Assembly (NCBI GenBank): GCA_963978895.1
Contig: OZ022240.1
Span: 18,939,983 to 19,003,982 of the forward strand
Direction of reading: 5' to 3'
Source: Erpobdella octoculata
Taxonomy: Eukaryota > Annelida > Clitellata > Hirudinida > Erpobdellidae
DNA: 64,000 bases
Shown here: positions 1,443-20,361 of the stretch, piece after piece
How positions within the stretch are numbered: position 1 is the first letter of the stretch
Layout of the letters: every line of letters starts with the position of its first letter
The notes under the pieces: model-generated
What the model saw: only the letters and a program-made list of their open reading frames with translations
Told to the model about the DNA's origin: nothing
The model's database searches: none
Position numbers and translations under genes: made by a program

Positions 1443-3420
1443 TCAACCAATCACATCATCGCATTCACCCCCACATTTGCATAACGAAGTGCATTTCAGA
1501 AATGACTTTCGACACTTGCAACGTCCAGCTGTACAGCTTTTGATACAATTGCAACGCAACAGTTTGTAGCAACTTTTTGCTGCTTCTGATATTGTCATCC
1601 AGACTTGTGTCCATCTTGAATCTTCCAAAGCCCAGCCCCAATCAGAATGAGGGAACATACTGGGTTGCAGAACAAGGGTTTCATTCCAACAGTGCACAGC
1701 TTGATGGAATGCTCGTTTCACGTGCTGTTTCAATGCGTCTTTTGTTGGAGGAATATTTTCCATGGAACGGCTTTTTTAGACAGATGTTTGAGTGCTTGTT
1801 CTGTCATACAACAAAATGATGAAGCGCTCGATTATATCTAAATTCTCATCAGTGATTCGATCTGGTGTGCTCATCATTGTGATTATCGCATCCGTCAGAT
1901 TTGGAAAAACTGACCAAGTGTCGTACGCGGATTTTTTTTCTCGACCACACATTGATGAAACAGTGTCACATCCGGTAAGTGCATGGAACATCGGAAGTGC
2001 TATTGATCTTCTCAATCCCGCAGTGTTTGCCAAATCATGGATTGAGATATAGCGAAAGAGTTTGCCGACTCCGACCACAATCCACAATGTTTCGACATTC
2101 AGCTGATGAAACATGGACACAGCAATAACTAGAACATCTGTGTCAACAGTTCGTAACAATATACAGATAACGTTCTCACCAAAGGTCGCCACGATCTGTT
2201 TTCAAGGTACTTCCATCTCTGTTAGTACAACTGCAAGATAAATGAACAACTCTGTTTTGTTGTCATCCAACCTCAAGAAATCTTTCAATTTGGTGGGAAG
2301 CTAGTCTCTCCTAAAATTCGTAGTCATATGATCCCGGTTCCTCGTTTGATTCTGGTTTCAGTTTTTAGACTGTCGGCACGATGCACGTCAAATACAACAT
2401 CAACACGATCTGCTTTTTCGAGGTACCTCAAGATGAAGGGCTCGAATGCAATTGTTTTACTAATTTCTGGATTGATCATCTGAACTGCTGCTGCTCCATC
2501 AATGATTACACAGCTGACATTTGGTTGATTGTTAATTTTTGTGTTGTATTCTTCGTCCAAACAAGTGATCAGATCTGATTTCGTACATTGTCTCATCTGG
2601 CCCGCCTGACAAAAAACTCATCAATATCTCCTTCCCTCGTTTGACTGGCAATATACAAACGGGAGAAAAGAGAACAGTCATTCTTTATAGCATTAAGATG
2701 CTGTTTTTATTTCGAAATACTGAGTTTTTGCGACATATTTCCAAACAGAGCCAACTTGTTGCATTGAATCGGAGCTTGAATTGAAATAATATTTGAATTA
2801 AATCTATCCCCTACATAATCAGTATACTGTTTCCTTCCAATCGATTTGATTTTCTGGACAGTAAACCACTTCGACAGTCACAATTATTTGAGACTTCAAC
2901 GACACCAGTTGATTGATTTCATCTAAGAATGGATTGCGAAGGTCTGAAAATACTTCAATCAATTTCTTTTTATAGGAGAAGAAATCTCAGCAACTTCTGC
3001 TTCATCAAAGCTGATGTGTTTTTTCTCTTGTGCTCTGTGTAGTTTCGTGGCATTGAATTTATCTCTGCAACATTTGTGCCAGCGTGCCTTGTTCTTATTC
3101 AGAGTTTCAGGTATACCGCTGCCGTCATCCAGTAAACTCAAGTCAATATTATTTGGCAAACTCTCGATCTCTGAAAATCCCATCAAATCATGTGCTAATG
3201 TATCATATCCAGCTCCAGCCGCAGGCAGCTTGCTCTCAACCGGACAAACTAAACGTATCTTCGAACTGTTTTCTTGGCATAACACACACATAAACCAGTC
3301 AATTTTTGGTGCCGGAGATTCGCATCCACTATTAATTACCAGGCAACGTTTCGACATGTGTGAAGTAGTTAGCCTTGAGGCTGGCAATGCTAATAAAAAA
3401 AAATAAAAAATTGCGTGCAC
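1443..3420 (-). pseudogene. Decayed copy of a large invertebrate TGCDTVS-motif protein
   Basis: Three minus-strand blocks lie in protein order. The N-terminal block (3420-2959) has WFMCVLCQE, AGAGYDTLAHDL and ARWHKCCRDKFNATKL. The middle block (2596-2324) has CVIIDGAAAVQMI and a DSLKTETRIKRG stretch. The C-terminal block (2192-1443) has LLRTVDTDVLVIAVSMF, PMFHALTGCDTVSSMCGR and RFIILLYDRTST, then a cysteine-rich tail (CNCIKSCTAGRCKCRK). I recognise these as landmarks of an uncharacterised protein family, usually over 1,000 residues, common and often multicopy in cnidarian and other invertebrate genomes. The TVDTDV...TGCDT part resembles a PIN/FEN-type fold, which is inference. Several hundred residues are missing between the first two blocks, and frameshifts separate the others, so this copy is dead. 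Function unknown; multicopy behaviour suggests a mobile origin. Confidence 0.7.
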
Positions 3421-4044
3421 TGGGCTGTGCTATACATTGTTGGATGGGTTTTAAAAAATGAAATCGAATAGTATGTTTGGGTTTTCTTCGGTTCAACAAA
3501 TAAAAAAGTTATAAGCCAAAAACGACGATTTTCCGACTAAAATTGCATAAAATCAGCCTTGGCTCTTCTTTGAGAAATTCGAACTTTTTTTAACTGCTGC
3601 ACTGGGAATATCCGAGGCACTTGTTTTTAGATAATTCAATATCAAATACAACAATATAACTATCGCTTCTAAAAGTTAATAAATAAAAAAGTTATCGAAT
3701 AAAACATCTGACCGTATACCAAGTTCTCCGAGCAAACCGAAACGTAAACAAACGCTGCGATTGGACAATCGAGTCTAGCTTACTGTTCATATTCGATCGC
3801 ATATTTTTAGTACTAAATCAATTTATTTATTCTGGCACTTTAGCAAAAAGTGTTATTTTTTAACTATTTTACCAATATTTTCAGAAATCAAATTCTTTAC
3901 AGCAGTTTGAAGGGTTGCAATGTTTATACAACATCTAAGCGGCTTAGCTATTTTGGAGAAAAGTGCATAAGACTGCAGAAAATTTTGAGATAAAGTACTC
4001 ACGTCCACACCCCTCTCCCGGTCACTAGCTATTTTGGGAGGAAA
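3421..4044. repeat. Dispersed repeat with two partial relatives in the window
   Basis: No gene seen. The segment 3421-3480 (gggctgtgctatacattg onward) recurs at about 28166-28225. The segment 3540-3690 (aaattgcataa... gctcttctttgag ... cacttgtttttagataatt) recurs at about 33195-33345. The arrangement suggests one repeat family whose other copy has been split, or two adjacent repeats. Confidence 0.5.
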
Positions 4045-4049
4045 AAGTG

Positions 4050-4875
4050 TGTGACGGGATTCTGCTCGGGTATTGATGCCTGACGACGAAACAACTGACT
4101 CGAGACTAACAAGGTTTAAAATTTTATTAAGATAACACAAACGACAATTAACACACTAGTCGGACAGAGCTTCACCTCTCAAAATCGCAAGAAGCAAGAG
4201 AACCCTAATTCCAATCGCAAATTTCCTTATATAGCCTAGCACACGTGTGGATTTTAATTGACAAAATCCACCAATCCGAATACAGCCTTAATTCCACATG
4301 ACCGTTTGACTAACCCCACGTGACCGTTTGACTAGCCCCACGTGACCGTTTAACACACAAAAGTTTACAAAGGCAATATACATCAAAATCACCGCAACGA
4401 AGTAATAATATTAAACTAAACTCCTTTTCCAAACAGATAATTCGTTTTGTAATTTGATATACTAAAAGGTTTTACATTAGCAGCGATACAAATGGCTAGA
4501 AATTAGTCAAAAGGAGTTATGATAATCACATCGCAGAACGAAAGCGCTTACGTCAGCACTCAACAAATTTACAAGAAAGTGTGCTTAAAATAAGTTAAAT
4601 TTCACGCTACAACTTATTTAATACTCATCCGAAATCGATAATATTAGGTACAAATAAAGGACTACACAATATCTATACAACGTACTAAAAATTATTATCG
4701 AAACTTGATAGGAAAGACGCTAGAATTCGAAGCACACCGAAATCGAGCAAGTTTGATTAATAAGCGAACCGACGCTACCCGTCTAGTCGGCGTTTTTCAT
4801 CGCGCTCTCCGCCTAGTCCGCGCAATAAAGTTATTCATTACAAAATTACAATCGACGATGGAGACAACCGTGACA
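4050..4875 (-). repeat. 3' LTR of the chimeric retrotransposon
   Basis: 826 bp, matching 9459-10308 throughout, with a deletion of about 25 bp near 4503-4530 relative to the other LTR. On the minus strand it starts TGTCACGG and ends CCCGTCACA. It carries a TATA box (minus CTATATAAGG, 4225-4234), a 22-bp tandem repeat containing CACATG/CACGTG (4295, 4317, 4339) and an AATAAA poly(A) signal (4123-4128, minus). Confidence 0.92.
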
Positions 4876-4877
4876 TA

Positions 4878-4888
4878 CCTCCCTTCTC
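4878..4888 (-). other. Polypurine tract of the chimeric element
   Basis: On the minus strand this reads GAGAAGGGAGG and lies two bases before the 3' LTR, where the plus-strand primer of LTR elements sits. Just upstream in the element (4894-4916) is a perfect 8-bp hairpin, CGATAACG with a 7-base loop. Confidence 0.85.
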
Positions 4889-4929
4889 AAAGACGATAAC
4901 GGATTCTTCGTTATCGGCTCACCTTGTCT

Positions 4930-5530
4930 TCATCGTCCGTCCTGGTATCCAGATGAATCGAGACACTGAGGTGGTTGTATTAAAGATGCAGTCGCATTAT
5001 GCATCGGTAGGCTAGAATGGTCAACAGTCACATCCATCTGATTACTGATGGCAACTGATAAATTTGATGCACCATCATAACTCGGTGTGAATGAACGTTG
5101 ACAAGATTCAACAGGCGTACCATTAATCTTAGCAGGAAAGTCAGGAGCATCATTTCCGACAAAAGAATTTGACGATGATGATGATATGGGTAGCGGAGGA
5201 TGCAGAGCAGTAGGATGAACCCGGTTGTCACTAGGTGGAAGAGGAAGAAAAGGAAGAAAAGGAGGCGGGATGCTCGGATTAAACGAAACAGGTGGAAAGT
5301 CTTTCATCGTACCCAACATTGGAGGAGGAGGATTGTGATGACTGATGACAGGGAATGACCATCCAGTGATCCTGAACTTGGATGTCCCATGGAAGGTAAC
5401 ATGACTGATGAACTGTTTGTCATTTGAATTTGACTGACCATACTGGAAGAGCTAGGGATGTTGTTGATTGGGGGTAACGGAGGTGGTGGGATCGATGGCA
5501 GGGGCGGTAGTAGTGGCTGAGGGGTATGAG
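4930..5530 (-). pseudogene. Frameshifted proline-rich tail of the captured SCAF-like gene
   Basis: Downstream of the long fusion frame the proline-rich coding sequence continues in other frames. A frame with PPLPSIPPPPLPP and a Ser-rich stretch runs about 5525-5350. After a second shift, 5319-4930 encodes SIPPPFLPFLPLPPSDN and a Ser/Thr-rich end. A proline-rich C-terminus after the RRM fits SCAF4/SCAF8-type proteins. Two frameshifts mean the captured gene no longer encodes an intact C-terminus, so this part has not been kept under coding selection since capture. Confidence 0.7.
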
Positions 5531-8164
5531 ACTTGGATTCATGGTGGTCTCATTGGATGGTGCATTTTCAGCTCCTTGAGACTTCTTTTTCTTTTTTGGT
5601 TTCCTCACTTTCAAAAGCTCACTATCAAAATCATGAGGTAAAGAGTCTTCATCAGCGATGCTTCCTTCGAGAAGAGTCGGAAGATCTTGAGATAAGAGCT
5701 GGTTCCATGGAACGTAGGTCACTCCGAGATCAACATCATACTTTTCATAAAATAATGAATACTTCACACCGACTCCAACTGCCCATGCAACCTTGAGATT
5801 ATTGCCTTGTATGGTAATTTTCTTCAGATGACCAAGTGCTTTGTGGGCATTTTTCCTTGTTTGAAAACAGATATAAGCACATCCTCTAGGAAGAACCAAA
5901 TTAATAGTGATCTCCCTGTATCCTTTCAGCTCTCCTTTCAATTCTTCTTCGGATGTCAACTTGTTCAAGTGACCAATCCACAGGGTCGTGCTGCAAATGC
6001 TTATCATCTCCGGTTTAATGGGAGGCATGCCTTCTTTTTCTTTGCTAGATTTTGCATCTTGACCAATAAACTCTACAGATGATCCCCTTGAACTGGATCT
6101 GCTTGTATGTTTTTCTTTTGCTTTCAAAGATGGCAGCTTTTTCTCCAGAAACCTTGACACGTCAACTGATTTCTTCTGCATGTCAATGAAAATGACATCA
6201 TCGTCATCCTCATCATCCATATTATCTTCATTAGTACCATACCCAACAGTGAATTCAGTCTTTCTTTTCTTTCTACTCGGAGGATTCGATGGCAAAACAT
6301 TCCTGCTTCTACCTCCTTTCGAATGACCCGAATATTCGACCAATGATTCACCCGTATCGTGACCTACTTGATGATTACTACTTCTCGACTGCTTCTCAAA
6401 AGCGTCAGAATTTTTCGACTCCCCTTTGGAAATCAGACCGGAATGTTCTCTACCGACTGAACTTGTCGAAGAGTACCTTTCTCTGTGTTTTTTCTTATGT
6501 CTAGATTTTTCACGTAAATCATCATCAGTAGCAGGAGAAGGATAGTATTTCTCGCTTTTCTTTTGTTTCGCTGACTTTTCAATAGATCTGCTTTTGTGCT
6601 TTGACTTTCTGCTTCTGTGCCCAACGTTGTCATAAACTTCTTTCCCTTCATCAGCATCACTCTCAACATTTTTTTCATGGTAATACTCATCATCGTGATC
6701 ACTGTAGTTGTGACTTCTCGATTTTGTGTGGCTCTTACGACTCCTTGACTCGCCGCCATCGCCGATCCTTTTCCTCTTGCGTCCGCTACGACGAGAATGC
6801 GAATCATCGACATCTGAGTATTCACTTCTCCTTTCGATTTCTTCATCTTCAACATCCGACTCATTGCACGCATCATCCTCTCCATCATCCTCCTCATCAC
6901 CATCATCAGGTTCCCTCATCAACGTTCTCGTGCCACGCTGCTTATCACTGGTTTGTTCACTGACGACACCACCTGCTCCTTCATCATAATTAGAGTAACT
7001 TTTTGAAGACCTACGAGATGATTCACCTTCGGGGGTCGAAGGAGTCATGGAAACGGGTTCGACATCACTCTCGTACTCCGAACGTCCTCGTTTACCAGGA
7101 GTGCTTTTTTTTCCATCGCCAACAACAGCCCTTTTAGAATGGCTGTGCTTCCTTGACCAATTATTCTGTTTATTGTGCGTAGTTTCATCCTCATGTCCAT
7201 CTTCTTCTCCTTCTTCTTGACGCATGAACGTTATTCTCTTGTCAAGCGAGGACATTTGCTGCGATTCTTCCCTCTTGTTCTCAACTTTATTTGAAATTAC
7301 TGTTGATTCGCTTGAGAGAACATTGTAGGTCTTCATACTGGCAAGAAGTTCCACTACCGAAGGTGTTAAGATAACCATTTCATTCAAGTCCGGCACCACA
7401 GCAAACCATACCTTGACCATAGGACTAATGTTTACTAAACGGTTTTCGTCTTCATCACCCGGCTTTATTTTCAAACATACCACGTCTACCACTGTTGATT
7501 CACCCTTGAACCCTGATATAGCAATTTGTTTTTGTACTGGCACATCTAATGGTTCGACGAGATTGGTGTGGACGCAGCAGATTTCCGCTCCTCCATCAAT
7601 AAGTGCTGATTGCGGTTCCAGACCCTCTATTTTCACTTGGACAAAAGATCTTTTGAAAATTTCGTTCGCCTTGACGCAATGTTCTTGTTTATCATTCGAT
7701 GGTTCGATTACGTTTCTATTTGCTTGACTAATAACTGAACATGATGATATCTTGGCAGCATTTCTGTTTGGACAATTCTTTGCCAAATGTCCTCGACCTT
7801 GGCAGGTGAAACAGAGACCCCTTTTCATTGCTTCATATTTTGCCTTGTCCAATGTTTGACGAATCGGCCTGTGATCGATTGCTCTCTCCATCATTTGTCG
7901 AACCGGTCGGTTATCGTTTCTTGGGTAACTGTACTCTGTTCTTGGTTTGGGTTCTTTTCTTGTAAATTCATCTCTTTCGTGAGAGGCCGTAAAGTTGTCG
8001 GCTGATTTGGCAAGCCGATCAAAACTCAACCATCCTTCCTGTTCTTGAGATAGAATGTAGTTCAAACACCCACGTGGTAATAATTCCTTCATACGATCAG
8101 CAACCAATAAGTTTACCAGTTTGTCGAATTCATTCTTTATGTTCCGGCTTTGGAGATAATACAT
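5420..8164 (-). CDS. Gag zinc knuckle and protease fused in frame to SCAF4/8-like RRM protein
   Basis: A 914-codon open frame with two origins. Residues 1 to about 280 are retroelement: end of capsid, zinc knuckle CFTCQGRGHLAKNC (about residue 120), and aspartic protease with active-site LIDGGAEIC (about residue 190). From about residue 300 the sequence is acidic and Arg/Ser/Lys-rich (RRSGRKRKR, RSRKSKHKSRS). An RRM then starts at STTLWIGHL (about residue 726) with PRGCAYICF as the RNP-type strand, followed by DVDLGVTYVPW. That last motif and the STTLW.G / PRGCAY pair are hallmarks of SCAF4/SCAF8, which bind the RNA polymerase II C-terminal domain and control transcript termination. The CTD-interaction domain found at the N-terminus of SCAF proteins is absent. 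No introns interrupt it, as expected for a spliced-mRNA copy. The true gag start lies upstream; the ATG at 8164 only marks the frame after the TAG at 8168-8170. A working product is doubtful. Confidence 0.85.
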   Translation of the reverse strand: MYYLQSRNIKNEFDKLVNLLVADRMKELLPRGCLNYILSQEQEGWLSFDRLAKSADNFTASHERDEFTRKEPKPRTEYSYPRNDNRPVRQMMERAIDHRPIRQTLDKAKYEAMKRGLCFTCQGRGHLAKNCPNRNAAKISSCSVISQANRNVIEPSNDKQEHCVKANEIFKRSFVQVKIEGLEPQSALIDGGAEICCVHTNLVEPLDVPVQKQIAISGFKGESTVVDVVCLKIKPGDEDENRLVNISPMVKVWFAVVPDLNEMVILTPSVVELLASMKTYNVLSSESTVISNKVENKREESQQMSSLDKRITFMRQEEGEEDGHEDETTHNKQNNWSRKHSHSKRAVVGDGKKSTPGKRGRSEYESDVEPVSMTPSTPEGESSRRSSKSYSNYDEGAGGVVSEQTSDKQRGTRTLMREPDDGDEEDDGEDDACNESDVEDEEIERRSEYSDVDDSHSRRSGRKRKRIGDGGESRSRKSHTKSRSHNYSDHDDEYYHEKNVESDADEGKEVYDNVGHRSRKSKHKSRSIEKSAKQKKSEKYYPSPATDDDLREKSRHKKKHRERYSSTSSVGREHSGLISKGESKNSDAFEKQSRSSNHQVGHDTGESLVEYSGHSKGGRSRNVLPSNPPSRKKRKTEFTVGYGTNEDNMDDEDDDDVIFIDMQKKSVDVSRFLEKKLPSLKAKEKHTSRSSSRGSSVEFIGQDAKSSKEKEGMPPIKPEMISICSTTLWIGHLNKLTSEEELKGELKGYREITINLVLPRGCAYICFQTRKNAHKALGHLKKITIQGNNLKVAWAVGVGVKYSLFYEKYDVDLGVTYVPWNQLLSQDLPTLLEGSIADEDSLPHDFDSELLKVRKPKKKKKSQGAENAPSNETTMNPSLIPLSHYYRPCHRSHHLRYPQSTTSLALPVWSVKFK

Positions 8165-8167
8165 TAA

Positions 8168-9106
8168 CTAATTTCTTAGCTTTGAAGCAAATAGTTGATA
8201 AGTTTCATTAGCTTGTTTCTTTATAGTGTAGAAATGTTCACGCAGCTTTATCGGACTTATTCTAAATTCATCTAACAAAAATTGTTTTACGGTTTCATAA
8301 TCATCCAAATCTTCATATGACAATCTCGAAATCAAAGACTTTGCCTTTTCATTAAGACACATTTGGAGAAGTTTTATTTTTTTATCAGTATCAACTTCAT
8401 ATATAACAAAACAATTTTCTAAATGTTCGAAGAAACTCGGAATCTCACTCGGATCATCAGGCAATTTCCTCATTACATTTTTCATTGCATCAACATACAT
8501 CTTAATTTTGAATACTAACGAGTCCTTTTCCGCAGCTCTAGTTTCATCTCTCTTTTGTCGAAGCAGTACATTCTCTTCTTGTAATTCTAACTCTTTTTCG
8601 CGGAAATGTCTATCTTCTTCAGTCTTCTGTTGCCATCTTGATAGTTCTAATTCTCTAATTCTCAGTTCATGTTCTTTAAATTTTAACTCTTCATCATCTT
8701 TCCTTCGTTGTCTTTCGAGTTCTTCTTCGTCTTTCTTTCGTAGTCTTTCGAGTTCTACTTCGTCTTTCTTTCGTAGTCTTTCGAGTTCTTCTTCTTTGAG
8801 TTTTAGTTCTTCTTCGTCTTTCCTTTGCAAACGAAGTAATTCTTGTTCTCTTATCTTCAGCTCTTGTGAAATCCTCCATTGTTCAAACTTTGATGCTTCT
8901 GTCATAAATTCTTCGGTTGGAGTGACACTACGCGATTCTGCTTCAATTTTTCCTTTTGATAACATTTCGGCCCATAAATTTAATAATTGTGGTCTTGTCA
9001 GGTTTTCTACTTCTTCAGATTTTCCTGCTGCCTTGAGTTTGATAATCAGACGTTCAGTCGGAATTCTTTTTATTTCAGCTTGTTTCTCTGCATCAAATTT
9101 GTCCAT
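8168..9106 (-). CDS. Gag protein (coiled coil and capsid region), ended by an in-frame TAG
   Basis: 312 codons starting MDKFDAEKQAEI. Residues about 12-50 (IPTERLIIKLKAAG... LTRPQLLNLWAEML) resemble a small helical SAP-like fold. Residues about 75-185 form a charged coiled coil with an 11-residue repeat (ERLRKKDEVEL, ERLRKKDEEEL, ERQRRKDDEEL). Residues about 205-312 (SFFEHLENCFVIYEVD ... LLDEFRISPIKLREHFY) match the capsid-like region of Ty3/Gypsy gag, which would form the particle shell. The frame ends at TAG 8170-8168 inside the capsid region, and the next frame continues in phase two codons later, so gag and protease were once one frame. The position, before the zinc knuckle, looks more like a nonsense mutation than a programmed readthrough site. 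Confidence 0.85.
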   Translation of the reverse strand: MDKFDAEKQAEIKRIPTERLIIKLKAAGKSEEVENLTRPQLLNLWAEMLSKGKIEAESRSVTPTEEFMTEASKFEQWRISQELKIREQELLRLQRKDEEELKLKEEELERLRKKDEVELERLRKKDEEELERQRRKDDEELKFKEHELRIRELELSRWQQKTEEDRHFREKELELQEENVLLRQKRDETRAAEKDSLVFKIKMYVDAMKNVMRKLPDDPSEIPSFFEHLENCFVIYEVDTDKKIKLLQMCLNEKAKSLISRLSYEDLDDYETVKQFLLDEFRISPIKLREHFYTIKKQANETYQLFASKLRN

Positions 9107-9144
9107 GTTGACGTAACTAGTCGTGTCTAACTTTAACGTTTATT

Positions 9145-9400
9145 TGAAATGTTCGATTCGTTCTTAATATTCAGTTCGTCGAATAAAATGTTCGGTTCGT
9201 CGAATAAAATGTTCGGTTCGTCGAATAAAATGTTCGGTTCGTCGAATAAAATGTTCGGTTCGTTCGATAAAATAATCGGTTCGTTAAATATCGTTCACTA
9301 TAATATTCGGTTCGTCGAATATTGTTCACTAAAATATTCGGTTCGTCAAATATTGTTCACTAAAATATTCGGTTCGGTGAATATCGTTCACTAAAATCAA
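9145..9400. repeat. 21-bp tandem repeats in the retrotransposon leader
   Basis: Between the primer site and gag, the unit ttcggttcgtcgaataaaatg is repeated about four times exactly (9170-9262). More diverged copies (gttcactaaaatattcggttcg) follow up to about 9400. It belongs to the 5' leader of the minus-strand element and may act in packaging or dimerisation (inference). The small plus-strand frame across it is an artefact. Confidence 0.8.
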
Positions 9401-9438
9401 CACGATTCGCAACAGTTTTGAACAAAAACGATGACCCG

Positions 9439-9456
9439 ATCCCACTTCTGACACCA
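9439..9456 (-). other. tRNA primer binding site
   Basis: The minus strand reads TGGTGTCAGAAGTGGGAT, starting two bases after the 5' LTR end at 9459. Its complement ends CCA and looks like the acceptor and T-arm 3' end of a leucine tRNA as I remember it. This fixes the minus-strand orientation. Confidence 0.8.
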
Positions 9457-9458
9457 AA

Positions 9459-10308
9459 TGTGATGGGATTCTGCTCGGGTATTGATGCCTGACGACGAAA
9501 CAACTGACTCGAGACTAACGAGGTTTAAAATTTTATTAAGATAACGCAAACAACAATTAATACACTAGTCGGACAGAGCTTCACCTCTCAAAATCGCACG
9601 AAGCAAGAGAACTCCAATTCCAATCGCGAAATTTCCTTATATAGCCTAGCACACGTGTGAATTTTAATTTACAAAAACCACCAATCCGAATGCAGCCTTA
9701 ATTCCACGTGACCGTTTGACTAACCCCACGTGACCGTTTGACTAGCCCCACGTGACCGTTTGACACACAAAAGTTTACAAAGGCAATATACATCAAAATC
9801 ACCGCAACGAAGTAATAATATTAAACTAAACTCCTTTTCCAAACAGATAATTCGTTTTATAATTTGATGTACTAAAAAGTTTTACATTAGCAACGATACA
9901 AATGGCTAGAAACGACACTTAGTCAAAAGGAGTTATGATAATTACTTAAAGAGCCAATCACAACGCAGAACGAAAGCGCTTACGTCAGCACTCAACAAAT
10001 TTACAAGAAAGTGTGCTTAAAATAAGTTACATTTCACGCTACAACTTATTTAATACTCATCCGAAATCGATAATATTAGGTATAAATAAAGGACTACACA
10101 ATATCTATACAACGTACTAAAAATTATTATCGAAAACTTAATAGGAAAGACGCTAGAATTAAAAGCACACCAAAAAAGGACAAGTTTGATTAATAAGCGA
10201 ACCGACGCTACCTCTCTAGTCGGCGTTTTTCATCGCGCTCGTCGCCTAGTCCGCGCAATAAAGTTATTCATTACAAAATTACAATCGACGATGGAGACAA
10301 CCGTGACA
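9459..10308 (-). repeat. 5' LTR of the chimeric retrotransposon
   Basis: 850 bp, same ends as the 3' LTR. On the minus strand it should hold the promoter: E-box repeats, then the TATA box, then the AATAAA signal (9532-9537). It keeps about 25 bp that the other LTR has lost. Confidence 0.92.
9635..9754 (-). promoter_or_regulatory. LTR promoter: triple CACGTG repeat and TATA box
   Basis: Three CACGTG boxes lie at 9705, 9727 and 9749 in a 22-bp tandem repeat whose units read ccacgtgaccgtttgacta. On the minus strand they are about 60-115 bp upstream of CTATATAAGG (9635-9644). CACGTG is the classic site for basic helix-loop-helix factors. The arrangement is what an upstream activator plus TATA promoter looks like; function is inferred. 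Confidence 0.6.
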
Positions 10309-10313
10309 AAGTG

Positions 10314-11339
10314 TATCAGATTTACGGCTGAAATTCGGCTTGAGCCGTATTTGAAACTTAAATTTGTCAGCCGTAATCGAGCCATAAGAAATTCGGCCAG
10401 CCGTAATTTTGCTCCAGCCAGCCGACATCCTGAAAAAAATTCGCGCCCGGGTCTATTTATGATTTATTTAAATTTGTATATTTTTAAATTTTAGAATTGT
10501 TTATTTTTTACATTATTGCTAACTGGCTAAGGTTTTCATTAGATTCGCTAGATTGCCATATAGCGTAAAAAACTAAATACTAATTAATTTTAATTTAATG
10601 GGTGCCTTGCAACTACCTAGTTAATAGTAAACTGGTACAACTTCACTAGAAGCACTTCAGTTGCTGCAGATAATGCATATTATTTGTTGTGACAGCCTGT
10701 GCAACCACGGAAAAACGGATGTAAAACTGAACAAGTAAAGGAAAAACGAGTTTTTCAACAGAAACTTTGATTTCAAATACACTCGATTTAGAAATACGAA
10801 GGATGTTCAAATTAAGTTTGTTTTTTTTCAATCGAATCATGTATTTTCATCGAATATAAAGCTATGCCAAAAGTTTCAGCTTTCTTGCTAGTCAAAAAGC
10901 TGGTTAAATTTTACTTGCAATATTTGCGTACAGAGAAAGACACACACACATACACAAACACACAAACAGAGATTGTAATCTAAATAAAAGTTTGTAAAAA
11001 AAAGAAGTGACAATCTGAGACAGAATGTAATGTGTGACAATATGTAACACAGAAGTTGTCTTTTTGCTTACAAACACCAGCTATAGTCACATTGACCACC
11101 ACTTTTGGTTTAAGATCATCACAGGCAAAATGGCACCACAATCTAAAAATCAACCATTATCCATTGCCAAAATGGACAAAATAAATATAATTTCTGGAAT
11201 TGGTTTAAGATCTTCATAGGCAAAATGGCACCACAATCTAAAAATCAACCAATATCCATTGCCCTAAAAATATGAGCATCATCAATTAGGATAGTGAAGA
11301 CATTCCGTATGGTTCCTAGGGATTACAAATCTAGGCCTT
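10314..11339. other. Intergenic stretch with a short tandem duplication
   Basis: No gene seen. A CA-rich microsatellite-like patch lies at 10935-10970. A unit of about 70 bp (ggtttaagatc.tca..ggcaaaatggcaccac) occurs twice, at about 11108 and 11203. Confidence 0.4.
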
Positions 11340-11407
11340 TTTCGGATACAGAGACAAACATTAGAAAAACCTCTAAAAACCCCGGGCAATGCCGGGTATC
11401 CTGCTAG
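11340..11407 (+). mobile_element. Helitron 3' end (solo fragment)
   Basis: Contains gagacaaacattagaaaaac, then the hairpin cccgggcaatgccggg, then CTAG at 11404-11407 followed by T. A short GC hairpin some ten bases before a CTRR end, inserted next to T, is the diagnostic 3' end of Helitron rolling-circle transposons. The rest of the element is missing or diverged. Confidence 0.75.
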
Positions 11408-11439
11408 TTATTATTATATTTTATTTAACATGGTCTCTA

Positions 11440-11658
11440 AATACATAAATGAGCGGAAACGGAAAAGCAACTGAGAGCGAGCGGGAAAGGGAAAGCGACC
11501 GGGAGAGGGAAGGTGACCGGGAGAGGGAAAGCAACCGGGAGCGGGAGAGCAAGCGGGGACGGGAAAGCGACCGGGAGCGGAGAGCAAGCGGGGAAGGAAA
11601 CGGGAGCAAGAGAGGCAAGAATTAGAAAAACCCCGGGAAACGGCGGGTACCCCGCTAG
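11440..11658 (+). mobile_element. Helitron 3' fragment with 18-bp minisatellite
   Basis: Copies of a roughly 18-bp unit (gggaaagcgaccgggag) lead into the same terminal hairpin and end CTAG at 11655-11658, followed by T. The minus-strand frames through it (proline/serine/leucine-rich) are translations of the minisatellite, not genes. Confidence 0.75.
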
Positions 11659-12793
11659 TTGTCCTATAAATAACTTCATACTTCAACAATAGGAATCGTT
11701 AGCGAGCTAATTTGGCATCGTTTACACACAGGCACAATGTTTATAAGCCATTTTAATAAAAGGTATGTTATGTCATATGGAGGTTGAATCACTTATTAAG
11801 TGTTTATTAACTTTCAGCTGAACAAGAGTTTTCCTATTGCCATGCATATAAGAACAGTGGTTTCTATGGGATCTGTTATTGCAATATAGGATATGTTGTT
11901 AGTAGTGGTGGTAGAAGTTGTGAAGGTAGGTCTATAATTAATTTTATACAGTTTGATATATTATTTGTGTTTGAATATCCAAATATTCAGTTTGGAAGGA
12001 GAGTATAATGATTATCATGTTTTTTTTTTGGTATTTTTTAAGATTAATTCTTCTGCGACCCAATTTTAGGCCACCAAAAACAGCCTATACAAATTACTTC
12101 TGCGGCCCAATTTCTTGCCACCCAAAACAAGCCATAAAATTTAATTCTGCAGCCCAATTTAAAAAAACTAAAATTTTATCAATGTAATTTTTATTGCATA
12201 TAGTAGTTTTATGTAAATTTATATCTTGTGATATTAAACACAGCCTTCTAAATACCTAATATGTGAAGCATGTGAGGATTGAAAATTTAAGAAACTTTCA
12301 AATCAATATAAACAAATTTTTTATTTAAAATTTGAAAATTAATGTCGCTTTTATAAATTTAAAATTAATTAACTTTACTTTATAAAATTATTAGTTTAAA
12401 ATTTTTTTAAAGTTTTAATTGATTTTATTCTACAATATAATGTTGTCCAATCTATCTGTTAAATTGGTCCGCAGCAAAAAATGAACCCACCCACTTATTT
12501 CAACTCGATTGTGAGGATTGAAAATAAAAGCTATTTCCTAATCAATGTGGAATAAACAAATATTTTATAATAAATTTTTAAAATTAAAATTAATTATCGT
12601 TTTCTTTAAAGAAAGCAAACATTAATGGTTTGTTTTTCTACATAAAAGTCCCTCCTAAGTCTGGTCTTCGTTCTTCTTCTCTTAATCATGCTCGCATCTT
12701 CACTATTAAGCATTCTGTTTTTTCGCGTCTAAAACTTTGAGGTTTTGTCGATTTTGTGTTTAAACATTGATTAATTAATAGTCTAAACAAGAT
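11659..12793. other. AT-rich stretch with triplicated motif and a LINE scrap
   Basis: No gene. Three copies of a roughly 50-bp motif (ttctgcggcccaattt ... gccacccaaaacagcc) lie at 12050-12165. At 12645-12740 the sequence (ccctcctaagtctggtctt...) matches the LINE 3' remnant at 40213 onward, so a short piece of that LINE type is present just before the next LINE. Confidence 0.45.
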
Positions 12794-13513
12794 ATGTCGA
12801 AAGCTATAACTCTCGAAAGTCTAGAAGTAGTTCTCACCCGTATCGTCGACAGAATGAGCGACAATATGACGCGCTTACTGGAGACCATGAATAAAAACTA
12901 TGAGGCTCTTCTTGATAGAATAGACAAAACAACAACTGACTCGTTAAAAGAAATGTCGACCAAACTCGAGGACATTTCTATAAGATTAGGTGCTTTGGAG
13001 TCTGGGGCTGAGTCTTCTAAATTAGTGACTGACGAGCGAAATCTATTAGGCAATCCAACTAGTATTGCCGAAGTACTGACTACCACTCTCTGGAGGTTGG
13101 AACAAGAAAAAGATGACAAAAAGCTAAGAGCAAATAACATTGTCATTTCTGGTTTGAAATATGATGAGAAAAAGTCAGATGCAGATTGTGTGGTAGACCT
13201 CTGTAAAAACAACCTTGCTGTGGTGCCCAGGATTGTCGGGACAAGGCGGTTAGGAAAAGACCTTAGAAATCCCAGAGCAAAAATATGTGTTACTCTAGAA
13301 AACCCTGCGGCAGCTGAAGAACTGCTGATGTCGTCTCGGATTTTGCGCTCGTCCAAGAATGAGGATGTACGAAAAATCTTTATGAACAGAGACCTGACCA
13401 AACAACAGGCTGAACTCAACTACAAAAAGAGATGCGAAAGAAGAAAAGTTACTGATGGTCATCCTCCTGCCCCGGCTGGGTTAAGTGGCGAAGGTCAACT
13501 TTTTCGGAAGTAA
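12794..13513 (+). CDS. LINE ORF1 protein
   Basis: 239 codons. The N-terminal half (about residues 1-80: VVLTRIVDRMSDNMTRLLE... TKLEDISIRLGALE) is a predicted coiled coil. Residues about 95-200 (EKDDKKLRANNIVISGL ... PRIVGTRRLGKDLRNPRAK ... ENPAAAEELLMSSRILR) match the RNA-binding ORF1 type of CR1/Jockey-group LINEs. ORF1p coats the LINE RNA and acts as a chaperone. The frame is open. It overlaps the endonuclease frame starting around 13485 in another phase, the usual ORF1/ORF2 arrangement. Confidence 0.75.
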   Translation: MSKAITLESLEVVLTRIVDRMSDNMTRLLETMNKNYEALLDRIDKTTTDSLKEMSTKLEDISIRLGALESGAESSKLVTDERNLLGNPTSIAEVLTTTLWRLEQEKDDKKLRANNIVISGLKYDEKKSDADCVVDLCKNNLAVVPRIVGTRRLGKDLRNPRAKICVTLENPAAAEELLMSSRILRSSKNEDVRKIFMNRDLTKQQAELNYKKRCERRKVTDGHPPAPAGLSGEGQLFRK

Positions 13514-16304
13514 CGGTAGCACCCTAGCTTTCACAAACCTCAAAAGTATATCTAACAAGATTGAAGATTTTCGTTTTTTTCTAGAAGACTGCAGACCAGA
13601 TATGTTTTGTATTACTGAAACTTGGCTATTAGAAGAGATTCCAAGTAGTTTATTTCTGACTAAAAATTATGATTCAGTTCGATACGATAGAAAAACTCGA
13701 GGAGGGGGTGTAGCGATGGTGGTAAAAACAAGAATTCCTCACAGAACCGTATTAGTACCTGATAGCTTCCGGCATATTGAACTTGTTTGTGTAGATATTG
13801 AATTAAACCATGAATCATACGGAATTGTCACATACTATCGTCCTGGAGGTTTTGGTGCTGAGGCGGAGATCTATATGGTGGACAGTATTAATTGTTTTAA
13901 AGCATTATATTCTTCGATACGTACAATGTGCCCGGTTGGAGACTTTAATTTGCCGGAGTTGGATTGGACCTGTTACTCTTATCCAAACAACAGAGTCTAC
14001 GGAGTGTTCATGGAATTTGTAAATGAATTTGGACTTCAACAGTTTATTCAAGAGCCGACCCGAGGAAACAACATTCTAGATTTGGTGCTCTCTGGGGACT
14101 CAATGTTGTGGAGTTTAGATGCCAGATCGCTACCAGTGACCACAATGTAATGATTCTCCATTTAGATGATACAGATCCAAGAGACAAAAGAGATGTTCGA
14201 AACTCATATATGTTTGATAAAGCAAACTTTGCCACAATAAACAACTTTCTGAAACTTGTGAAATGGGACGACATCTTCCAATATTGTTTCGACGTAGAAA
14301 ACTGCTGGAATGCCCTTCAGCAGTGTATGAGTTATGTGACACAAACCTTCGTTCCAGTTCGTACTGTATTGAGCTCACGAGGACGACTAAGAAAAATCTC
14401 CAATAGAATAAAACGTCTATATAAATCCAAATTATTCTTCTGGAAAATCTGGAAGCATACTAAAGAGAATAAAGATAAAATCAAATACATGGAGTTTTCA
14501 AAATTATGTACTAAAGCAGTAAAAAGAGAACAATATGACATTGAGAAGGGTCTTGTTTTATCTGGTAACGTTGGTGCTTTCTACAAATATATTCACAACA
14601 AACTCTCCTTGAATTCTAAAATTACTGGGATCGAAACAAGTGATGGCACGATTGTTACAGATCCGGCTAAAATGTCAAATGTCTTCAACGACTATTTTGC
14701 AACCGTTTTTACAAAAGACAATGGAAGTAATCCACCTCTGGTACAACGGTCTCCCAATCTCCTGGAAGAAGTTACGTTCACTCCTGATGTTGTTTTTTAA
14801 ACCCTGAGAAGTCTTCGAATGACAAAATCTTGTGACCCAGATGGTATACTGAATATATTGCTTAAACGCTGCGCCCAAAACTTGACTATTCCACTCTGTC
14901 ATATTTTTGAAATGTCTCTCAAAACACGAAGATTGCCCGAAATATGGAGAACTGCATACATCACACCAATTCACAAAAAAGGACCTACAAGTGTTGTCTC
15001 AAACTACAGACCAATCTCTCTCACGTGTACATGCTGCCGCGTTATGGAAAAGATTGTTAGCAAAAGCATCTTAGCCCACCTCTCTACTCATTGTCTTATT
15101 TCTCCACATCAGCACAGTTTCCTGAGACAGAGATCAACTTGTACGAACCTTCTGGAGTGTGTACATGACTGGATTATGGGGTTACTGGATGGTGGTCGAG
15201 TGGACATTGTTTATTTTGATTTTCAAAAGGCTTTCGACTCGATCTCCCACCCAAAGTTGAAGACTAAACTCATTAGCTACGGAATATCAGGTGATTTGTT
15301 GGCATGGATCTTGGATTTTTTGAGTGCTCGAAAACAGCTTGTTCGAATTGGTGAGTGCTTATCTGCTCCGAGAGATGTTACCAGTGGCGTCCCTCAAGGA
15401 AGTGTCCTGGGCTCCATACTCTTTCTAATTTTTATTAACGATATTACTGATGGTGATGCTTTCGGATCGGTCTCTGTCAAGATGTTTGCAGACGACATAA
15501 AAATTTACTCAGCAACTCAGCCCACATCTTCTTCGGCTCCAGAAATACAGAGAGCAGAAATACTGGAGTGAAACATGGCAACTGAATCTGGCACTATCAA
15601 AGTGTTTTGTATGTCCCATTCACAGGCGAAGAAACGACAAGGGCTTCGAAATACCTAGATATCTAATTGGGACATACGAGCTTAAACCGACCGAGCAAGC
15701 ATGGGATCTGGGTGTACTAATTGATAACAACCTTGATTTCAAAAAACACATTGAGAACATTATCCACTCTGCGACGGGGAAACTTAGATTAATAAAACTA
15801 TGCCTCCTGTCTAAAGATCCGTATCTGATGAAAAAAGCATTCACTACATACGTGCGACCATTGCTCGAATACTGCTCTCCAGTTTGGAGCCCTAGGCACA
15901 AGTACCTAATCGACGGCCTGGACAAGGTTCAGAAAAGATTCACCCGAATGGTTCCAAATATCAGCCATCTACCATACTCGACCCGTCTCAGCTTTTTAGG
16001 ATTGAAAACTCTAGAAGAGCGCAGACTTATCGCAGATCTTTGTTTCTGTTACAGATCTTTAAATGGAATGGTGGATTCTAGCCTGGTTGGACAATTTAAA
16101 CGAGCAAATTATGAAAAAACAAGGGGCCATAGCTATAAACTGATGCCAGGTCAATTTAGAACTGACGATGCCAGGTTTTTCATATTTGGCCGTGTGGTCT
16201 CAGCATGGAATTCTTTGCCTCAGGATGTTGTTGGATCATCAAACTACAGTCGGTTCAGAAGCTTGATAAATCAGATGGATTTATCTAAGTTTTCAAGACT
16301 TTGA
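13485..16304 (+). pseudogene. LINE ORF2 (endonuclease and reverse transcriptase), frameshifted
   Basis: Four plus-strand blocks together make a nearly complete ORF2. Block 13485-14150 is an AP-like endonuclease (ITETWL, GDFNLPELDW). The SDHN motif follows in the next frame at about 14130 (block 14108-14800). Block 14819-15571 is the reverse transcriptase: KGPTSVVSNYRPISLT, FDFQKAFDSISHPKL, SGVPQGSVLG and FADDIKIY. Block 15828-16304 is the C-terminal domain (TYVRPLLEYCSPVWSPRHK ... SAWNSLPQDVV). The layout fits the CR1/Jockey group. Frameshifts near 14130, 14800 and 15575-15830 inactivate it. A diverged relative lies at 57134-58598. Confidence 0.85.
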
Positions 16305-16530
16305 ATTTTTCATGAAGCATTAGCAGATCTGGATGTCACATGAACCGATTTTTGGAAGTATTTAGAGAGATTTTGAAGATTGCGGTGGAAGTTTCAAACT
16401 TCAAGGCATTATCTATAAGCGTTAAGAACAACAATTTGTCAGGTTTAACCGATCCATAAATGCAAAATTTAAATAGTTACAAGAATTAATATCTTATTCA
16501 ATATGTTATTTATTTTATTATTATTATTAT
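16305..16530 (+). other. LINE 3' UTR and (TTA)n tail
   Basis: No coding sequence. The stretch ends in ttattttattattattattattt (16506-16530). The tail could belong to this LINE or to the minus-strand RTE element whose coding end abuts it at 16531. Confidence 0.5.
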
Positions 16531-17384
16531 TTAGTCCGTAGCCGGCGCTTGTGGAGGAGGATGTCCTCGAAGCCAATACGCTGATGTCGGTGCCACGGGA
16601 CCACGAACGTCTTCCACGACAATCTTCCATTTTCCTCGATCGGCTGCAACCCTTCTCTCCCCATCGGCAGTCAGTCGCTTCCTCTTGAAGTCCCCATCAA
16701 TCATTTTCAACCATGTTTTCTTTGGCGCCGAACGTTGGATGCGCCAGCCAGGCGGTCGCTCCCGCCAAAGTAAACTATTGGGAAGCCGTTTACCATCCAT
16801 TCGGCAGACGTGCCCGAACCACCATAGTCGCAGTTTTTGGATGTGTTCATCGATCAGTGGTTGTCGATCACACCGTTCACGGATCGTCTCGTTTCGAATG
16901 CGGTCGCGGATGGAGACTCCCAGTATTCGCCGCAGGCATTGCATTTGGAATACTTCAAGTCTATTCACATCGGATTTAAACAATGTCCATGTCTCCGAGC
17001 CATATAGGAGGATCGGAAGAATCAATGTTCGGTAAAGACGAATTTTTGTGTTGATTGTAATGTTCGTTCTCTTCCAAACGCACCATCTGAGCGCTGCAAA
17101 TGCCGCAGTTGCCTGGCCAATGTGGCTGTGGACGTCGGCCGACGACGACGTCTTCTTTTCCTGCACGATCGATCCAAGGTATTTAAATTTCGTCACTTGC
17201 TCGATCTGGACATCATTTAGGTGGACACGAGCTGCTGACCCGTCCGTTGTTAATACCTTGGTCTTCTCGGCGTTGATCTTTAGGCCGTATGACTTGGCAA
17301 TATCGCCGATGTTGTTTAGGCAATCTGTAGCTTCCACGTCGGTGTCGGCGAATACGGCGCTATTGTCCGCGAACATCAGATCAG

Positions 17385-18943
17385 TAAGCATCTGCGTCCC
17401 GATATCGTTATCTCGAGTTCAATCGAGATTTCAAAACGATACGGGAGATCCCGTATCACCATTGAAACGATACAGCCTGCGGAAGAAGTCTCGTATCTAT
17501 ATAATTAGCGATACTTAACATTTCATTCCCGATTAAAATCCCGAAAAATATCGAGATTTTTAACAAATATTTTCCAATAAATAACGAAAGTCATACATAT
17601 TTAATTAACGATTGTCACAAATGTGAATATTTGCAATTGATTCATCAACATTGAATAATTAATCTACCTATTGACAGAAGTTTATAACTATTATCATCCC
17701 CACTTTAAATTCGGTTTTCCAGACAGCCTGTAGCCCCATTATTTACTATTTTTAGTCTGGGAACCGGCAGCAAAAAAGCCACGCTCCTCTTAGGCTGCTA
17801 GTCGAGCTCTGCATACTACTGATACTACAAGCCCTACAAGACAATCGTACTCGCTGACATCGATGACTATTATTATTAATGAGAATAATGAGTAATGTAA
17901 TAGTAATGATCATTCTATGTTTATGTTTTGGTTTAGTCTATTTCATAAACTTATTTTTTCAAATTTGTTACATAGAATTGGAATGATTATTTTAGTGTTT
18001 CGATATCCGTAATTGACCGTAATAGTAGCTCATCTAAGATATATCTTTATAATCTCGATGATATTCTTGGTTGTGTGTGAGTATGTGTGTGCCACCTGTA
18101 GTGTGCACGACAGTGCCGTAGCCCGTATCGTATGCAGCTGGAATTCGAAACTTTCTCAGCTTCTTTCTTGCTATTGCTAACCGCATTCGCCATCGCCTAT
18201 AAATAAACACGCTGGGTTTTTTTTCACTTTCTTAATTCTTGCATAGAGGCACTTTCTCGTGTTTGTCATCATTATCATGCCGCGTCACCGGGGTGAAATC
18301 TGGGAGTACTTTGAGGAAGAGACGGTCACGCAGAAAGTCAATGACAAGGATGTAGAAGTAAATCTTGCCAGATGCAAAGACTGCGGGAAACAGTATCATT
18401 TTAATTTAATCTTAGTAATCTAGTAATCTCAATCTCAGTAATCTGCAATCTATTTCTATCTCCATTGGTTTTTCCACTTTCACTATTGAATTGCCTAAAA
18501 TTGTCGTTCTTTTGGTGTGCTAGAAGGTTTTCTACTTTTCAATTACTTAAAAAAATAATTTTAATTTTTTTTTCATCGGCAAGTAAAATCATTTAATTAA
18601 ATTGATAAACTACCGCATAATGCGTACTAAATAAAGTAAATAAATACTTACTATCGGCGGTAGTGTTTTATTTAGAATCTAAATTTAGAAAAATATATGT
18701 ACCGAAACTAAACAAATTAAACTTATTTCAAGTTGTAAAAAAAATTAAAATTGGTAAATTTTTATACATTTTTTAATATTTATTAATTTTTTTCAATGAA
18801 TTTCCACTTCAGTCGAGATTCCGATATCGTATCGTATCGTTATTGTTCGAGGCGTCTCGTATCGTATCGTTTAATTCGAGGCAAATTTCAGAAATCGTAT
18901 CGTATCGTATCGTTCCAAAAAAATAACGGGACGCAGAAGCTTA
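17385..18943 (+). mobile_element. Complete non-autonomous hAT element
   Basis: 1,559 bp between 17-bp terminal inverted repeats, TAAGC(A/T)TCTGCGTCCCG with one mismatch. It is flanked by perfect 8-bp target duplications CAGATCAG (17377-17384 and 18944-18951). Eight-base duplications and TA-starting termini fit the hAT superfamily. It sits inside the reverse transcriptase of an RTE LINE. The interior holds ATCGT runs near the right end and a short BED-finger frame, but no catalytic domain, so it depends on a transposase made elsewhere. Confidence 0.9.
18277..18423 (+). pseudogene. BED-type zinc finger fragment of hAT transposase
   Basis: 48 codons from ATG 18277 to TAG 18421, with MPRHRGEIWEYFEEE and CKDCGKQY. 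Same frame as at position 13, with two amino-acid differences. It is the only recognisable transposase remnant in this element and lacks the second half of the finger. Confidence 0.6.
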
Positions 18944-20361
18944 CAGATCAGTGATAAAGTTGTTTTTGTCGTATTGAACACCACGCCTTCCTTTGAATGA
19001 TTTCCTCATGATCGCATCGATCACGACGTTAAATAACAGTGTAGAGGCGACGTCTTCCTGCCGGACACCGGTTTGAATGGTAAACTCGTCGGATAGGTCG
19101 TTTCGAATTCGGATGCAGCTGGTCGAACCACTATACGACGCTTGTAACAAACAGATGACTTTCGGTGGTATATTTTCTCTTTCCAATGCCGTCCACAATG
19201 ATGGCCAATGGATGCAGTCGAAAGCCGATTTGAAGTCGATGAAGACAACAACAGTCCACCGGCCACATCGAACCCTCTCTTCCACAAGTTGGCGTAGTGC
19301 GAAGATTTGATCGATGCATCCACGATTCGGTCGAAATCCGGCCTGTTCCTCAAGGCACGATTGTTTACAATGTTTTTGTAGTCGTGACTGAATGATCTTC
19401 GTAAATACTTTCCCAACGATTGAAAGGAGACTAATGCCGCGGTAGTTTTTGCATTCTCGACTGTCTCCTTTCTTCAAAATGGGAACGACGATCGCTTTCT
19501 TCCACGCTGATGGTACGTACTCCGTGTCCCAAATGCATGTCAATAGGACGTGTAGACGTTGCAATAGAATGTCACCACCAGCTTTGATCATCTCGGCTGT
19601 AATTTGATCGATGCCCGGCACTTTTCCGTTCTTGAGAGATTTGACGGCCGCTTTCACTTCGGCGATTGTTGGTACGTCGACGGGAAATGGGATCTGCGGT
19701 TGATCGATTTGTGGCGGGTCCGCGGCTGGTCCTGCAGGCGGATCGTGGTTGTATAGTTTGTGGAAAAATTCCCGCCACCTCTGTAATCGATCGGAGGACG
19801 AACTAACAAACTTCGATATTCATGTCGTGATGCGGCTTCTTCCATTTCGGCTACAACATCGTTCCAATATGCCTCTCGCTCGATCTTCATTTTCCGCCTA
19901 ACCTCTTGATTAAGTTGCCGGTATTGTTCGAAATCGACGTGCTTGATTCTTTTCCGCTCAGCTACCAAATCCAGACACTCATCCGAAATCCATGGCTGCG
20001 TTCGTTGACTGATCGGCGGACATAACGGCGCCACACATTTGATGACGGATTTGGTTATTTGTTTTTCTTCATCGTTGACATCGTCCAATGTATTGAGGAT
20101 CGCAAACTTGTTCGATAAAGCAAGCTGGAATTATCAGGGCCACGCATTGCTCGAACGTCGTTGAGCGTCGATCGAAAACGCTTGTTGATCAGAACGTAGT
20201 CGAGCATGGCCGAATCTTTCCCCGACGGGTTTCTCCACGTGAGCCGATGATTCTTCGGGTGTTGGAAGAGGCTGTTGCCAATGACGAGGTTGTTTACTGA
20301 CGCAAACGACAACAGTCGCTGCCCATTGTTGTTGATTTTTCCGTGGCCGAATCGTCCAAGC

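What the first reader, a model, noticed from the sequence alone, without database searches (positions are those of the whole stretch)
4045..10313. An LTR retrotransposon that has captured a host RNA-processing gene (SCAF4/SCAF8-like)
Seen: intact LTRs, 5-bp duplications, primer site and polypurine tract enclose gag and protease. An intronless region then encodes an RS-like stretch, an RRM with STTLWIG / PRGCAYICF, and DVDLGVTYVPW. Known: that last combination marks SCAF4/SCAF8, host factors of transcription termination; LTR elements normally carry RT, RNase H and integrase there. Inference: a cellular mRNA was joined into the element during reverse transcription, replacing most of pol, and the chimera was then mobilised in trans. 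That is the same logic as gene-transducing retroviruses, in an invertebrate Gypsy-like element. Because complete LTRs and a target duplication flank the chimera, the fusion existed before this insertion.
Basis: partly seen in the sequence, partly recalled or inferred. Interest (0 to 1): 0.93.

Follow-up and report, generated by a model that had tools for sequence, protein, structure and literature searches.

The report
Retrotransposon carrying a captured SCAF gene
A jumping gene in this genome swapped most of its own enzyme genes for a spliced copy of a host RNA-processing gene, and close relatives did the same with two, probably three, other host genes, so one parasite family seems to pick up host messages repeatedly and spread them.

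Summary
Window 4045-10313 is a minus-strand LTR retrotransposon insertion (AAGTG duplication, PBS, PPT, gag, protease-like region). Its 3' half is a spliced SCAF4/SCAF8 cDNA. The only parent gene found lies on contig C5; 11 of 11 introns are exactly absent, and upstream parent exons match SCAF8/SCAF4 CTD-binding domains. The junctions carry 8 and 7 nt of element/host identity. A second locus (C7) shares the 5' junction and 28 differences from the parent, so the chimera predates both insertions.

It is not a one-off. Of 40 loci matching the protease region, 23 carry host-gene cargo: alpha-spectrin (16), SCAF (2), two other long-ORF genes (2 and 3). Fourteen carry integrase; three are undetermined. 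One pol-bearing copy shows the order gag-PR-IN-RT-RH. Three of three assessable captures continue the gag-PR frame.

Most likely mechanism: template switching between co-packaged element and host RNAs, then mobilisation in trans by pol-bearing relatives. This is inferred, not assayed. Cargo shows no clear amino-acid selection. Precedents exist (LTR-mediated retrocopies, Bs1, crocodilian ERVs), so this is a variant of a known kind; the recurrence and copy numbers are notable.

The parts
4045..4049 (.). target-site duplication AAGTG (left)
   Evidence: read
4050..4875 (-). 3' LTR (826 bp)
4878..4888 (-). polypurine tract (sense GAGAAGGGAGG) beside the 3' LTR
   Evidence: read; same letters in L037
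4876..4972 (-). residual element 3' tail (end of the RNase H region of pol-bearing relative L037)
   Evidence: match to L034/L037
4966..4972 (-). 3' junction: 7-nt identity between host mRNA and element L037 (sense ACCTCAG)
4966..7282 (-). captured SCAF4/8-like cDNA: 12 exon pieces, 11 introns absent, starts downstream of the CTD-binding domain
5792..5983 (-). RRM within the captured part
   Evidence: Pfam RRM_1, E 1.2e-05
7275..7282 (-). 5' junction: 8-nt identity between element L037 and host mRNA (GAGAACGA; reads GAGAACAA in the window); imperfect against relative L034
7283..8167 (-). end of gag (zinc knuckle 7766-7816) and protease-like region (about 7454-7651), open into the captured part
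8168..9139 (-). gag frame (323 aa), separated from the next frame by a nonsense codon absent from relative L034
9440..9456 (-). primer binding site (TGGTGTCAGAAGTGGGA), 2 nt from the 5' LTR; tRNA not identified here
   Evidence: read
9459..10308 (-). 5' LTR (850 bp)
10309..10313 (.). target-site duplication AAGTG (right)

Best explanation
A Ty3/Gypsy-type LTR retrotransposon whose pol-bearing form is ordered gag-PR-IN-RT-RH co-packaged a spliced SCAF4/8 mRNA. While copying minus-strand DNA, its reverse transcriptase switched from the element RNA's RNase H tail to the host mRNA at a 7-nt match, copied about 2.3 kb of it, and switched back to the element RNA at the end of protease at an 8-nt match. 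The product keeps LTRs, PBS, gag-PR and PPT, loses IN, RT and RH, and continues the gag-PR reading frame into the host protein. Chimeric copies were then transcribed, packaged and integrated with enzymes supplied by pol-bearing relatives. The family did this at least three times, probably four; the alpha-spectrin chimera multiplied most. SHOWN: structures, splicing (SCAF, spectrin), junctions, shared junctions at separate loci, pol-bearing relatives. INFERRED: template switching as the route, co-packaging, enzymes in trans.
For: Eleven of 11 SCAF introns exactly removed. Parent identified by CTD-binding-domain exons matching SCAF8/SCAF4 chains, E 1.6e-22 and 4e-19. Five of seven distinct junctions over three cargos carry 7-8 nt identity between host and relative L037 (chance of 7 or more at one random junction 3.8e-4). 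Second SCAF locus shares the 5' junction, 28 differences from the parent and a 3-bp deletion. Alpha-spectrin: 11 of 11 introns GT-AG and absent; the same 5' junction in 10 of 13 fetched loci (the other 3 have a deletion across it) and the same 3' junction in 3 of 3 loci that hold it. TSDs: AAGTG at the window, ATTAT at spectrin chimera L034/L044. Of 40 PR-bearing loci, 23 carry host cargo, 14 integrase, 3 undetermined (my tally over). One pol-bearing copy, L037, has H2C2 and rve, then RVT_1 and RT_RNaseH downstream of PR.
Against: Two of seven junctions have little identity: spectrin 5' 2 nt, second-copy SCAF 3' 0 nt with 5 nt nearby. The 8-nt SCAF 5' match holds against L037; against L034 it is imperfect, and the true donor copy is unknown. 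The second SCAF copy has a different 3' junction, so a further recombination must be assumed. Its outer LTR ends were not reached, so its target duplication is untested; no clear duplication was seen at L037. Cargos 3 and 4 come from long-ORF parents, so splicing cannot show their RNA origin, and cargo 4 is only about 77% like its presumed parent. A gag/PR tree does not sort copies by cargo; most supports are low. RT was examined in one relative only, and it is broken by frameshifts. No expression or activity data.
Confidence: 0.9

Rival explanations
1. Read-through route, as in classical retroviral transduction: an element inserted in or near the SCAF gene, a joint transcript was spliced, and only the 3' junction formed by template switching.
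For: Would also give an intron-free host part; two SCAF copies share a 5' junction but differ at the 3' one.
Against: The 5' junction lies inside a parent exon at an 8-nt element/host identity, not at a splice site. The acidic-cargo 5' junction also has 8 nt.
Confidence: 0.06
2. LINE-made processed pseudogene: a SCAF retrocopy was inserted by a LINE into a resident element and spread with it.
For: LINEs insert repeatedly into these LTRs.
Against: The SCAF cargo shows no poly(A) or duplication at its edges, is cut at both ends inside the transcript, replaces rather than interrupts pol, and the SCAF, spectrin and acidic cargos sit at or shortly after the same end of PR.
Confidence: 0.02
3. The two SCAF copies are independent captures that chose the same 5' switch point.
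For: Their 3' junctions differ.
Against: 28 sites and one 3-bp deletion are shared against the parent, although parent-lineage changes are mixed in; the same 8-nt switch point twice is unlikely.
Confidence: 0.04
4. Assembly artefact joining an LTR element to a cDNA.
For: None found; reads were not available.
Against: Host cargo follows PR at 23 of 40 loci on many contigs (tally over); two chimeras were checked and have target duplications.
Confidence: 0.01

Closest known systems
LTR-mediated retroposition in metazoans (Tan et al. 2016, Genome Research; paper not held, known here through passages of PMC5408686, and PMC9674220)
   Same: Spliced host mRNA joined to an LTR element by template switching at microsimilarity
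   Different: Here one family shows three, probably four cargos, one at 16 PR-bearing loci, with gag-PR continued in frame into the host protein
Gene capture by crocodilian endogenous retroviruses (PMC4299795 passages)
   Same: Host mRNA (KIT-ligand, nectin3) carried in multi-copy elements
   Different: Those are vertebrate ERVs (nectin3 at the expense of env) with purifying selection reported on the captured ORFs; here pol is replaced and no clear selection on the cargo was seen
Maize Bs1 (passages in PMC13317346)
   Same: LTR element with pieces of several host genes
   Different: Bs1 combined three genes in one element; here each element examined carries one gene and different elements carry different genes
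Defective acute-transforming retroviruses with gag-onc fusions (recalled, no call)
   Same: Gag fused to a host protein, pol lost, helper needed
   Different: No infectivity or phenotype known; cargo looks neutral
Gmr1-like Gypsy elements (PMC8220671 passages)
   Same: Integrase upstream of RT in relative L037
   Different: Clade membership by RT phylogeny not tested

Membership tests
LTR retrotransposon | Paired LTRs with 5-bp target duplication, PBS and PPT | tested here: met
   PBS and PPT by reading, tRNA not identified
LTR retrotransposon | gag with zinc knuckle | tested here: met
   zf-CCHC 21.2 bits, cut-off 20.8
LTR retrotransposon | Aspartic protease | tested here: inconclusive
   Asp_protease_2 E 0.004 and RVP E 0.027, below cut-offs
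LTR retrotransposon (autonomous) | RT, RNase H and integrase in the element | tested here: not met
   No match in the three window frames scanned; present in relative L037
Gmr1-like Gypsy clade | Integrase upstream of RT | tested here: met
   L037: H2C2 and rve, then RVT_1, then RT_RNaseH; one copy, a relative and not the window element
Gmr1-like Gypsy clade | RT/IN phylogenetic placement | not tested
   No reference set used
LTR-mediated retrocopy | Intron-free copy of a host mRNA inside an LTR element | tested here: met
   SCAF 11 of 11 introns, spectrin 11 of 11
LTR-mediated retrocopy | Microsimilarity at switch points | tested here: met
   5 of 7 junctions with 7-8 nt; 2 of 7 with 0-2 nt
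SCAF4/SCAF8 | N-terminal CTD-interacting domain and RRM | tested here: inconclusive
   Parent exons match the CTD-interacting domain and the RRM exons align to the window's RRM; the captured part has the RRM but begins downstream of the CTD-interacting domain
Gag-onc type defective retrovirus | In-frame gag fusion replacing pol | tested here: met
   SCAF, spectrin and acidic cargos in frame; fourth cargo too decayed to judge
Gag-onc type defective retrovirus | Packaging and spread with a helper | not testable with these tools
   Integrase-bearing relatives exist; activity unknown

The most novel reading that the evidence does not exclude
This Gypsy family is a habitual host-mRNA transducer. 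Its Gag-PR-host fusions are kept open and outnumber pol-bearing copies because the fusion helps the defective element (for example by avoiding RNA surveillance of a long untranslated tail, or by adding a scaffold to Gag particles), making it an LTR-retrotransposon counterpart of gag-onc retroviruses without infection.
Probability: 0.18. Interest if true: 0.88.

Novelty: new variant of a known kind. Interest (0 to 1): 0.73.

Why it matters
Host-gene capture by LTR elements is mostly described case by case. Here one genome holds a natural series from one family: three, probably four cargos, two of them with introns that prove an RNA step, readable switch points, shared and re-recombined junctions, and a cargo lineage (alpha-spectrin) at 16 PR-bearing loci against 14 integrase-bearing ones. 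That makes it directly testable how often template switching captures genes, whether in-frame fusion is selected, and how defective chimeras live off pol-bearing relatives: the step before retroviral gene transduction.

Tried and rejected
Rejected: a one-off event (other cargos); a LINE-made pseudogene (no poly(A) or duplication seen at the SCAF cargo edges); assembly join (many loci); two independent SCAF captures (28 shared sites); a splice-site 5' junction (it lies within an exon).

Led nowhere or negative. Selection on cargo: SCAF window-only changes 7 synonymous/24 nonsynonymous, second-copy-only 15/25 plus 1 stop, shared 16/12 (parent-lineage changes are mixed into the shared class and no outgroup was available). 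Spectrin: singletons 36/116/6 stops, shared by some copies 19/41/0 (P 0.16), in all copies 7/2/0 (12 of 17 spectrin loci: L011 left out as too short, four not fetched). Control, gag/PR of 13 spectrin copies: singletons 24/33/5 (P 0.051), minor allele in two or more 14/15/0 (P 0.018); over 23 copies 23/21/1 (P 0.0006). So gag/PR is constrained and cargo is not clearly so. The absence of stops among 60 shared cargo changes (about 3 expected) is weak. I first took the break of many 5' LTRs near the transcription start for RNA-derived copies; two searches showed LINE insertions. I first took L034 for a pol-bearing parent; it carries spectrin. Two notebook entries are superseded: entry 1 says the second SCAF copy spans both junctions (only the 5' one is shared), and entry 3 says L037 lacks RT (it has RT pieces). 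The PBS tRNA search and the COX1 search for the organism did not complete. Tan et al. and Jin & Bennetzen are not held. Searches for print reports of SCAF or spectrin capture by an LTR element showed none on point (listings only).

Full report
1. The element. The window element lies on the minus strand. LTRs at 4050-4875 and 9459-10308 differ at 33 of 826 aligned sites (K2P 0.041). The duplication AAGTG flanks it (4045-4049, 10309-10313). A PBS (9440-9456) and a PPT (4878-4888) are in place (read). Gag is open over 323 aa, then a nonsense codon, then a 915-aa frame with zinc knuckle, protease-like stretch and RRM. Relative L034 reads through that gag position in one frame, so the stop is not family-wide.

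2. The captured part. Window 4966-7282 matches one gene on contig C5 (minus, 9320986-9328943) in 12 exon pieces. All 11 introns (82-3972 bp) are GT-AG in sense and exactly missing from the window. Differences are 64 in 2317 aligned bases. About 8 kb upstream of the captured start, parent exons match the CTD-interacting domains of SCAF8/RBM16 and SCAF4 in the PDB (E 1.6e-22, 4e-19), so the parent is SCAF4/8. The captured segment starts after that domain: it holds the charged/RS-like region, the RRM and what follows. A whole-genome DNA search (8 of 8 candidates scored) found the SCAF sequence in three places only, apart from five short weak matches of 66 bases or less: the window, contig C7 and the parent.

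3. Junctions. At 7275-7282 host and relative L037 share 8 nt; at 4966-4972 they share 7 nt. Against relative L034 the 5' match is imperfect; the actual donor copy is unknown. The host frame continues the gag-PR frame. Relative to the parent the window copy has one 3-bp, one 4-bp and one 1-bp deletion, and with the nonsense codon in gag it is no longer intact.

4. The second SCAF copy (C7:16998215-17003235; L031). It has the same 5' junction and lacks gag between window-equivalents 7857 and 9415. Its 3' side differs: host sequence ends at window-equivalent 5174 and joins the element further upstream in the RNase H tail. 28 sites and a 3-bp deletion are shared with the window copy against the parent; 31 changes are window-only and 41 second-copy-only in 2066 compared sites. 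The simplest history is one capture, then recombination of a chimera with a pol-bearing relative for the second copy. LINE-like sequence interrupts its LTRs; its outer ends were not reached, so its target duplication is untested. Window flanks 1501-4049 and 10309-12800 share only three short stretches (143, 78 and 40 bp, 74-93%) with the fetched surroundings of this copy, so it does not look like a duplication of the window site.

5. The family. A search with the protease region gave 41 matches (40 of 44 candidates scored), 40 loci because two rows belong to one locus. What follows PR, compiled by me (40 of 92 candidates scored), 108 and 118: SCAF 2, alpha-spectrin 16, an acidic protein 2, a fourth charged protein 3, integrase 14, undetermined 3. 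Among the 25 loci of at least 94% identity over at least 581 of 624 bases, 18 carry host cargo (2 SCAF, 15 spectrin, 1 acidic) and 7 integrase. A further spectrin fragment without PR lies at C5:32778241.

6. Alpha-spectrin. L034's 1331-aa frame is gag-PR fused to spectrin repeats (Pfam Spectrin E 5.8e-103; that it is the alpha chain is my reading of the sequence, from no call). The parent is on C10 in 12 exon pieces; 11 of 11 introns are GT-AG and absent from the copies. The 5' junction is the same in 10 of 13 fetched loci; the other three (L010, L013, L014) share an in-frame deletion across it. The 3' junction is the same in 3 of 3 loci whose fetched stretch holds it (L027, L034, L040). So one capture probably multiplied. 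L034/L044 has its own duplication ATTAT and LTR K2P 0.014. The tool reports open frames above 1100 aa for 7 of the 13 fetched spectrin loci, two of them with a stop inside the matched gag-PR stretch; only L034's frame was read in full.

7. Cargos 3 and 4. L039 (C11) and L047 (C1:33.48 Mb) carry a piece of a long-ORF gene at C7:383 kb (93-96% identity), with 8-nt and 7-nt matches at L039's junctions. L023 (C5:12.9 Mb), L049 (C1:20.9 Mb) and C11:11.45 Mb (not fetched) carry a piece related (about 77%) to a long-ORF gene at C11:116 kb: an older event, or a relative of the true parent. These parents show no clear intron in the captured part, so the RNA step is inferred by analogy.

8. Pol-bearing relatives. 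L037 encodes integrase (H2C2, rve) soon after PR, then RT (RVT_1) and RNase H, the order described for Gmr1-like elements (PMC8220671 passages). I examined RT in this one copy of 14, and it is split over frames. Eight integrase-bearing copies are at least 95% identical over what matched. In the window, spectrin and acidic chimeras the cargo therefore stands in place of IN-RT-RH and leaves LTR, PBS, gag-PR and PPT.

9. How it probably works. Copying from the 3' end, RT left the element RNA in the RNase H tail for a co-packaged host mRNA and returned to element RNA at or shortly after PR. Five of seven junctions fall on 7-8 nt identities (one random junction reaches 7 nt with probability 3.8e-4); two have 0-2 nt. 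Chimeras keep what is needed in cis and need RT and integrase in trans. That step is inferred.

10. Is the cargo used? Changes private to single copies look neutral. Changes shared by some spectrin copies are not significantly constrained (19 synonymous, 41 nonsynonymous, P 0.16), whereas gag/PR in such copies is (14/15, P 0.018). No stop occurs among the 60 shared cargo changes, and three of three assessable captures are in frame, which hints at pressure to keep the frame open but proves nothing. A gag/PR tree of 30 copies does not group by cargo, with mostly low supports: recombination or poor resolution.

11. Novelty. Template-switch capture by LTR elements is known: LTR-mediated retroposition (via PMC5408686), Bs1 (via PMC13317346), crocodilian ERVs (PMC4299795), Masc retrocopies in a moth (PMC9674220); I read passages only. 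What is unusual is one family with three, probably four cargos, and chimeras outnumbering integrase-bearing copies (23 to 14). The listings of my paper searches did not show such a case in an animal LTR retrotransposon, but most subscription papers are not held.

Noticed in passing
LTR position equivalent to window 9610-9625, in L034/L044, L025/L043, L006/L041, L012/L042, L004, L019, L031: A poly(A)- or CAA-rich LINE-like tail is joined at the same spot, near the presumed transcription start of the 5' LTR, in 7 loci of this family, against 11 loci read through it (window included); the other fetched loci do not decide. Five were followed outwards: in four the LTR resumes with 8-15 bp overlap, in L031 it does not within the 6 kb more that was fetched. 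It looks like a LINE that targets this LTR; the stretch beside L025 (L043) encodes RT and RNase H.
   Followed up: partly
window 21348-25751 (+): 1467-aa open frame of another Gypsy element with the usual order protease-RT-RNase H-integrase, unlike the captured-gene family.
   Followed up: no
window 12782-19819 and 55089-55922: Broken retrotransposon frames with RT matches and a weak, below-cut-off endonuclease match.
   Followed up: no
C7:9.29, 9.34 and 9.38 Mb (L029, L028; the first not fetched): Diverged pol-bearing copies close together; the two fetched are nearly identical, so probably segmental duplications rather than separate insertions.
   Followed up: no
window 9166-9290: 21-bp tandem repeats (TTCGGTTCGTCGAATAAAATG) between gag and PBS, in the 5' leader of the element.
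   Followed up: no
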